Positions 32,424-33,524 of a stretch of 41,294 nt of DNA are shown here, piece by piece (position 1 is the first letter of the stretch; each line of letters opens with the position of its first letter). The translations under genes were made by a program, and so were the position numbers. The stretch comes from Alphaproteobacteria bacterium MarineAlpha3_Bin7. GTDB taxonomy: Bacteria > Pseudomonadota > Alphaproteobacteria > Rhodospirillales > UBA2165. The DNA lies in contig PTLG01000004.1 of NCBI GenBank assembly GCA_002937995.1, forward strand, positions 1 through 41,294, written 5' to 3'. The notes below the pieces were generated by a model, which saw nothing but the letters and a program-made list of their open reading frames with translations, was not told the origin of the DNA and ran no database searches.

Positions 32424-33524
32424 TTACAAATGTCTAAAAGTGTTTGCGGCGGATCTAAAGGAGTCTAAATTAAGCTCCTCCCGTATATCTTTAGTTGCCT
32501 TCAACATAATATCGTCAACTGGAATTCCACAGCCATTGGCTATTCTATCATTCTTAGAAAAATTAGCCGCAATCGCAGAGGCAGCCGGAATTGCATCTGG
32601 TCCTAATTGCTTCTCAAGATCAAACCTCGCATTATTTAATCTTTTGCTATCGTTACCAATAAGTGCTTCAGAAAATTCAAGAAGCTCGTCTCCACCAGGC
32701 ACCCCAATGTCTTGACTAGAGTCCACCAACCCTTTGAGGTTTACTTCCAAGTTTTCTACTCGTCCACTCTCACGGAGGAACCGGGCGTGAGAGCTAGTTC
32801 AATAAAAGCATTCGTTGAGAGCCGAGACCTTACCTGCAACAACCTCTACTTGTGCTCGACTAAGGCCCTTGTGATGCCGGAGATCAAAATTCATTATGTT
32901 TCCCAATGGCTGATACTGCGCCTTTTCCAATTCCATATGCTTTGTTACCTCATCAGGCACTAGGCTTAAACCTCGTACTATATAGGGTTTAGGGGGTTTT
33001 TCTCCAAATAGTTGCTTTGCGGGCAACCCACCCTCAGGAAAATTTGGGATTGTTGATACCCAAGCTAATTCTAATTTTGCGGTTTCTGGTCTAACCTTTG
33101 AGGGAGGGCTGACACCAGGTTCAGGAAAAGCAATTAAAGGATGATTAATTCCTCTTGCAAAAATATCCATGTCGACAATCCTGGAGACAATACCAACAAT
33201 TTCAACATATTCCTCTTCACTAAGGCCAGTATTAATAACTTCGTCAAAAAAATCTTTTAAAATATCCTTTGGAGAAATAGCTAATTTCTCAACAACTAAT
33301 TTTGCTACTTTAGACAATTTAAAATTGCTTTCATGAGCAAATGTGTTCGGTGTTTCCTCTAATAGCCCAGCAGATATACCCACCTCTCGAGCAAAACTAG
33401 CAATAGCTATACGTTGTTCTGAGTTTCCCCAAGTACCCGCAACGGCAAAATCAAGAAAGTGATCCTTATGAACAGTTTCAATTTCCTCTTTTATTAAATA
33501 CTTTGAATCAGAATAGAGTCCCAT
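32424..33524 (-). CDS. Predicted selenoprotein: two-domain AhpD/CMD-like peroxidase with in-frame UGA (Sec242)
   Basis: ORFs 32799..33524 and 32424..32750 share one frame, separated by one TGA (32799-32801) and 16 sense codons; readthrough gives LSRAQVEVVAGKVSALNECFYUTSSHARFLRESGRVENLEVNLKGL with the AhpD motif E-x11-C-x2-U-x3-H. Confidence 0.85.
32767..32793 (-). promoter_or_regulatory. Candidate bacterial SECIS stem-loop
   Basis: Minus strand TGA-ACTAG-[CTCTCACG]-CCCGGTTCCTC-[CGTGAGAG]: perfect 8-bp stem (9 with an outer G.U), 11-nt loop containing GGUU, starting 5 nt after the UGA. Confidence 0.75.

What the first reader, a model, noticed from the sequence alone, without database searches (positions are those of the whole stretch)
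32767..32793. SECIS-like stem-loop immediately after the in-frame UGA
Downstream of UGA (minus strand): ACUAG then CUCUCACG-CCCGGUUCCUC-CGUGAGAG, a perfect 8-bp stem (9 with G.U) inside the coding sequence. The GGUU in the loop starts 17 nt after the UGA, about the spacing seen for the apical GGU loop of the E. coli fdhF SECIS. The loop is 11 nt and its first two bases are CC rather than G-containing, so it is not a textbook bSECIS match, and SelB specificity in this lineage is unknown.
Basis: partly seen in the sequence, partly recalled or inferred. Interest (0 to 1): 0.8.

Follow-up and report, generated by a model that had tools for sequence, protein, structure and literature searches.

The report
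Known AhpD-type selenoprotein; SECIS hairpin re-placed
The stop codon here almost certainly inserts selenocysteine into an already described bacterial redox protein, and the RNA signal that permits it is a small conserved hairpin overlapping the one first noticed, which itself looks like a chance pairing.

Summary
The hairpin CUCUCACG-N11-CGUGAGAG exists exactly at 32793..32767 (-), five bases after an in-frame UGA. The gene (33524..32424, -) is a full-length member of NCBIfam NF041238, 'alkylhydroperoxidase-related (seleno)protein', with a CFYU motif. This family has been known since 2005 as Sargasso Sea 'hypothetical protein 1'. The genome carries tRNA-Sec, selA, selB and selD. All 43 distinct homologous sites fetched have UGA at the same codon.

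A different, overlapping hairpin is: six pairs around the loop CGUGA (32780..32763 in the window). Its loop starts 24 nt after the UGA, has G followed by U, and the stem shows compensatory changes at four of six pairs. Its codons are the most strongly synonymously constrained in the gene, and it is broken in two Cys homologues. Its 5' arm is a freely evolving stretch that happens to be complementary in the window.

Verdict: a SECIS after this UGA is right; the particular hairpin is not. It is an ordinary new member of a known kind. I could not see the published SECIS drawing for this family.

The parts
32424..33524 (-). Selenoprotein gene: AhpD-related protein, NF041238, 366 aa when UGA is read as Sec (annotation programs stop it at 241 aa)
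   Evidence: (331 bits against a cut-off of 175)
32799..32801 (-). In-frame UGA, codon 242, second position of the CxxU redox motif (C239-F-Y-U242)
   Evidence: UGA at 43 of 43 distinct homologous sites found through the motif; Cys in the homologues L084, L085 and P0011
32763..32780 (-). Conserved bSECIS hairpin: UUCCUC-[CGUGA]-GAG(u)GGA, loop starting 24 nt after the UGA; the outer pair G32781-C32762 may extend it
   Evidence: covariation; synonymous constraint; folds; covariance model
32767..32793 (-). Probably a chance, competing structure

Best explanation
The UGA at codon 242 is decoded as selenocysteine in an AhpD-fold redox protein with a CxxU active site. The decoding signal is a standard-type bacterial SECIS at 32780..32763: a short stem closed by the loop CGUGA, with the loop starting 24 nt after the UGA. 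SelB carrying Sec-tRNA-Sec binds the loop G-U and delivers Sec. It is a lineage-specific, probably accidental alternative fold. A ribosome with the UGA in its A site should open at least part of its 5' arm (nt +6 to +13) and let the SECIS form. Shown here: reading frame, family, conservation, covariation, synonymous constraint, machinery genes. Inferred: SelB binding, ribosome opening of the rival hairpin, and actual Sec insertion.
For: Family: NF041238 at E 7e-99; CMD domain. Machinery in the same genome: tRNA-Sec, selB and selA side by side on C203, selD. All 43 distinct homologous sites found have UGA at this codon. SECIS stem: 86.7% of cells paired, 4 of 6 pairs with compensatory change, covariation 0.266 against 0.175 +/- 0.016, 0 of 500 shuffles as high; the slid versions pair in 34-63% of cells. 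L027 and L072 encode the same residues here, yet change A-U to G-C by two synonymous changes (GCA/GGT to GCG/GGC). Codons 249-253 are the most synonymously conserved five-codon window in both subgroups (0.99 and 1.00 against means of 0.39 and 0.44), while T243, residue 245 and H246 vary freely. After the UGA, window versus L041 shows 25 synonymous against 6 non-synonymous codon changes, so the downstream part is translated. The Cys homologues have 3/6 and 1/6 of the SECIS pairs, fold it in neither case, and do not match model R1. With the first 11-14 nt after the UGA removed, folds of the window's RNA give the SECIS hairpin.
Against: The subfamily of the window has a bulged U36, so its stem is 3 + 3(4) pairs. 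Its local energy of -6 kcal/mol misses the -7.5 limit quoted for the bSECIS model, although that limit may apply to a longer stretch. RNAalifold alone recovers only the three inner pairs. The alternative stem was first spotted on a subset of the same sequences, so the count is not wholly independent. No protein or selenium data exist for this organism.
Confidence: 0.93

Rival explanations
1. The reader's 8-bp hairpin is itself the SECIS in this lineage, with SelB reading GGUU in an 11-nt loop.
For: It is perfect in the window, in its identical metagenome copies and in L041 (90% protein identity), and it is the lowest-energy fold. A perfect 8-bp version with a U-A to G-C change also occurs in L046 and L017.
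Against: Not conserved or covarying over 40 homologues. The 5' arm codons evolve freely and GGUU is not kept. The inner four pairs largely follow from the invariant His codon plus the SECIS loop. It would leave no G in the first two loop positions (model).
Confidence: 0.03
2. Both structures matter: the reader's hairpin masks the SECIS loop in free mRNA and is opened by the arriving ribosome, tuning efficiency or mRNA stability.
For: The two structures share the loop bases. Four inner pairs (13-16 with 28-31) are possible in most homologues, and 8-bp versions occur in two separate lineages. No change between the window and L041 in the 13 codons after the UGA.
Against: No covariation above shuffles. 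The inner pairs are largely explained by the invariant His codon. Most homologues have only three to five contiguous pairs.
Confidence: 0.05
3. The UGA is a true stop or a sequencing error and the gene is a pseudogene.
For: Annotation programs end the protein at about 239 aa.
Against: UGA at the same codon at 43 distinct homologous sites from many genomes, purifying selection downstream, Cys homologues and complete Sec machinery.
Confidence: 0.01

Closest known systems
NCBIfam NF041238, AhpD_rel_CFYUT ('hypothetical protein 1' of the Sargasso Sea selenoproteome, PMC1088965; listed in PMC13188914)
   Same: Same protein family and same CxxU position; a SECIS was drawn for a member in PMC1088965 (figure not readable here)
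   Different: Nothing of substance; this report adds a covariation-supported position of the hairpin
Bacterial SECIS consensus model (PMC13188914, Fig. 2A) and E. coli fdhF SECIS (PMC8659212)
   Same: Short stem, small loop with G then U near its start, loop 24 nt after the UGA (range 16-37)
   Different: The window's subfamily has a bulged U on the 3' side of the stem, not the 5' bulged U17 of fdhF, and a weak local energy

Membership tests
NF041238 AhpD-related (seleno)protein | Full-length profile match over the curated cut-off | tested here: met
   331.4 bits against 175, profile positions 1-357
NF041238 AhpD-related (seleno)protein | CxxU/CxxC motif followed by T..H | tested here: met
   CFYU-TSSH; C239, residue 242, T243 and H246 invariant in 25 aligned members
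Bacterial selenoprotein gene | In-frame UGA conserved in homologues, Cys in others | tested here: met
   43 of 43 UGA; Cys in L084, L085 and P0011
Bacterial selenoprotein gene | Genome encodes tRNA-Sec, SelA, SelB, SelD | tested here: met
bSECIS consensus model, hairpin 32780..32763 | Loop of 3-9 nt with G in its first two positions, 16-37 nt after the UGA, stem of 4-16 bp | tested here: met
   Loop CGUGA, G at position 2 followed by U, 24 nt, 6 pairs with one bulge
bSECIS consensus model, hairpin 32780..32763 | Energy of -7.5 kcal/mol or lower | tested here: inconclusive
   -5.9 to -6.0 for the upper hairpin in the window, -5.3 to -10.1 in UGA homologues; the stretch the limit refers to is unknown
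   11-nt loop CCCGGUUCCUC
Bacterial selenoprotein gene | Sec present in the protein, SelB binds the hairpin | not testable with these tools
   needs experiment

The most novel reading that the evidence does not exclude
Probability: 0.05. Interest if true: 0.5.

Novelty: new member of a known kind. Interest (0 to 1): 0.2.

Why it matters
The gene adds a well-supported member to a known marine selenoprotein family, for which I found no functional study, and which databases truncate at the UGA. The covariation-based placement of its SECIS gives a concrete element to test. It also shows that the most stable hairpin after a UGA need not be the SECIS.

Tried and rejected
The Rfam scan of the window found only two tRNAs. 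A single-protein scan of genome contigs found nothing. The alignment scan of genome contigs found only Cys proteins, apparently because its patterns use Cys codons at this position. RNAalifold on the alignment gives just the inner three pairs. I considered a conserved 4-bp contact between columns 13-16 and the SECIS loop. It forms in most sequences, but the His codon forces most of it, and when G16 changes nothing compensates. The phylum-wide sample of 401 genomes added no further family members.

Full report
Observation. The hairpin is in the sequence exactly as described. Counting the UGA (32801..32799, minus strand) as columns 1-3, it pairs columns 9-16 with 28-35 around an 11-nt loop. It is the minimum-energy fold, but the stretch as a whole is no more stable than shuffled sequence (z -0.79). 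The window holds 11 perfect hairpins of this class, and ten shuffles of it gave 3 to 14; within the 60 nt after the UGA such a hairpin arises in 29 of 5000 shuffles.

The gene. Reading the UGA as an amino acid joins ORFs 33524..32799 and 32750..32424 into one protein of 366 residues. It is a clear full-length member of NCBIfam NF041238, 'alkylhydroperoxidase-related (seleno)protein', with a C-terminal CMD/AhpD domain and CFYU at residues 239-242. An AlphaFold2 model is confident (pLDDT 92.9). Its PDB matches, all weak by E-value, are led by AhpD-type peroxidase-related proteins, with the debrominase Bmp8 and Sestrin2 among the others. The family was described in 2005 as Sargasso Sea 'hypothetical protein 1' with CXXU and a predicted SECIS (PMC1088965), and a 2026 review equates that family with NF041238 (PMC13188914).

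Selenocysteine decoding. The genome has tRNA-Sec, adjacent selB and selA and selD, and a second family member on contig C81, also with UGA. Of 24 genomes of the taxonomic family, 20 carry members. All seven that are at least 90% complete and carry a member also have selA. All 43 distinct homologous sites have UGA; Cys takes its place in L084 (Henriciella MAG), L085 (Bermanella MAG) and P0011, of which L084 and P0011 also pass the NF041238 cut-off. Between the window's gene and L041 the part after the UGA has 25 synonymous and 6 non-synonymous codon differences, so it is translated and selected.

Which hairpin. Forty distinct UGA sequences align without gaps over 60 nt. The overlapping hairpin of columns 22-27 with 33-38 and loop 28-32 pairs in 86.7% of cells. 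It has compensatory changes at four of six pairs and exceeds all 500 shuffles in pairing and covariation, and its slid versions are much worse. The cleanest case is L027 against L072: the residues in this stretch are the same, yet two synonymous changes turn A-U into G-C. In the window's subfamily the stem keeps six pairs by bulging U36. This alternative was found by eye after reading the first homologues and then counted on the larger set, so the count is not wholly independent of its choice.

Constraint at the RNA level. Among homologues sharing an amino acid, codons agree in 39-44% of pairs over the gene, but in 99-100% over codons 249-253, the top window in each of two subgroups. Cys homologues have 3/6 and 1/6 of the SECIS pairs and give no match to a covariance model of the element; that model was built from the UGA sequences and also scores their primary sequence. 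In the whole genome it finds only this site and the C81 paralogue.

Mechanism. The loop CGUGA begins 24 nt after the UGA and has G then U, as the bSECIS model requires (PMC13188914). In fdhF, G23 of the apical loop and the bulged U17 are the SelB-binding sites, and U24 beside G23 is also conserved (PMC8659212). That a ribosome at the UGA does this withholding is my inference.

Conclusion. This is an ordinary, well-supported new member of a known selenoprotein family with a standard-type bSECIS. I have not seen the published SECIS drawing for this family, so I cannot say whether the placement given here is new.

Noticed in passing
G000:C81:2136-3188 (L021): A second NF041238 paralogue with UGA in the same genome; its SECIS loop is GGUAU rather than CGUGA.
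   Followed up: partly
window 33683-35412 (-): Upstream genes on the same strand resemble the two subunits of a Rieske ring-hydroxylating dioxygenase (anthranilate AndAc/AndAd type, below the curated cut-offs), preceded by a polyamine-like ABC transporter and a hydantoinase B gene.
   Followed up: partly
window 31322-32401 (+): Convergent 2-oxoglutarate/Fe(II) dioxygenase gene; among the fetched family loci it recurs only beside near-identical copies and L041, plus a weak match in L026.
   Followed up: partly
P0002-P0121: Nearly all database entries of the closest relatives end at about 239 aa, right at the UGA, so the family is systematically truncated in protein databases.
   Followed up: yes
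   Followed up: partly
model of the window protein: Besides single-domain AhpD proteins the fold search lists human Sestrin2 over nearly its whole length (TM 0.42-0.48, high rmsd), a hint of a shared tandem AhpD-like layout.
   Followed up: no
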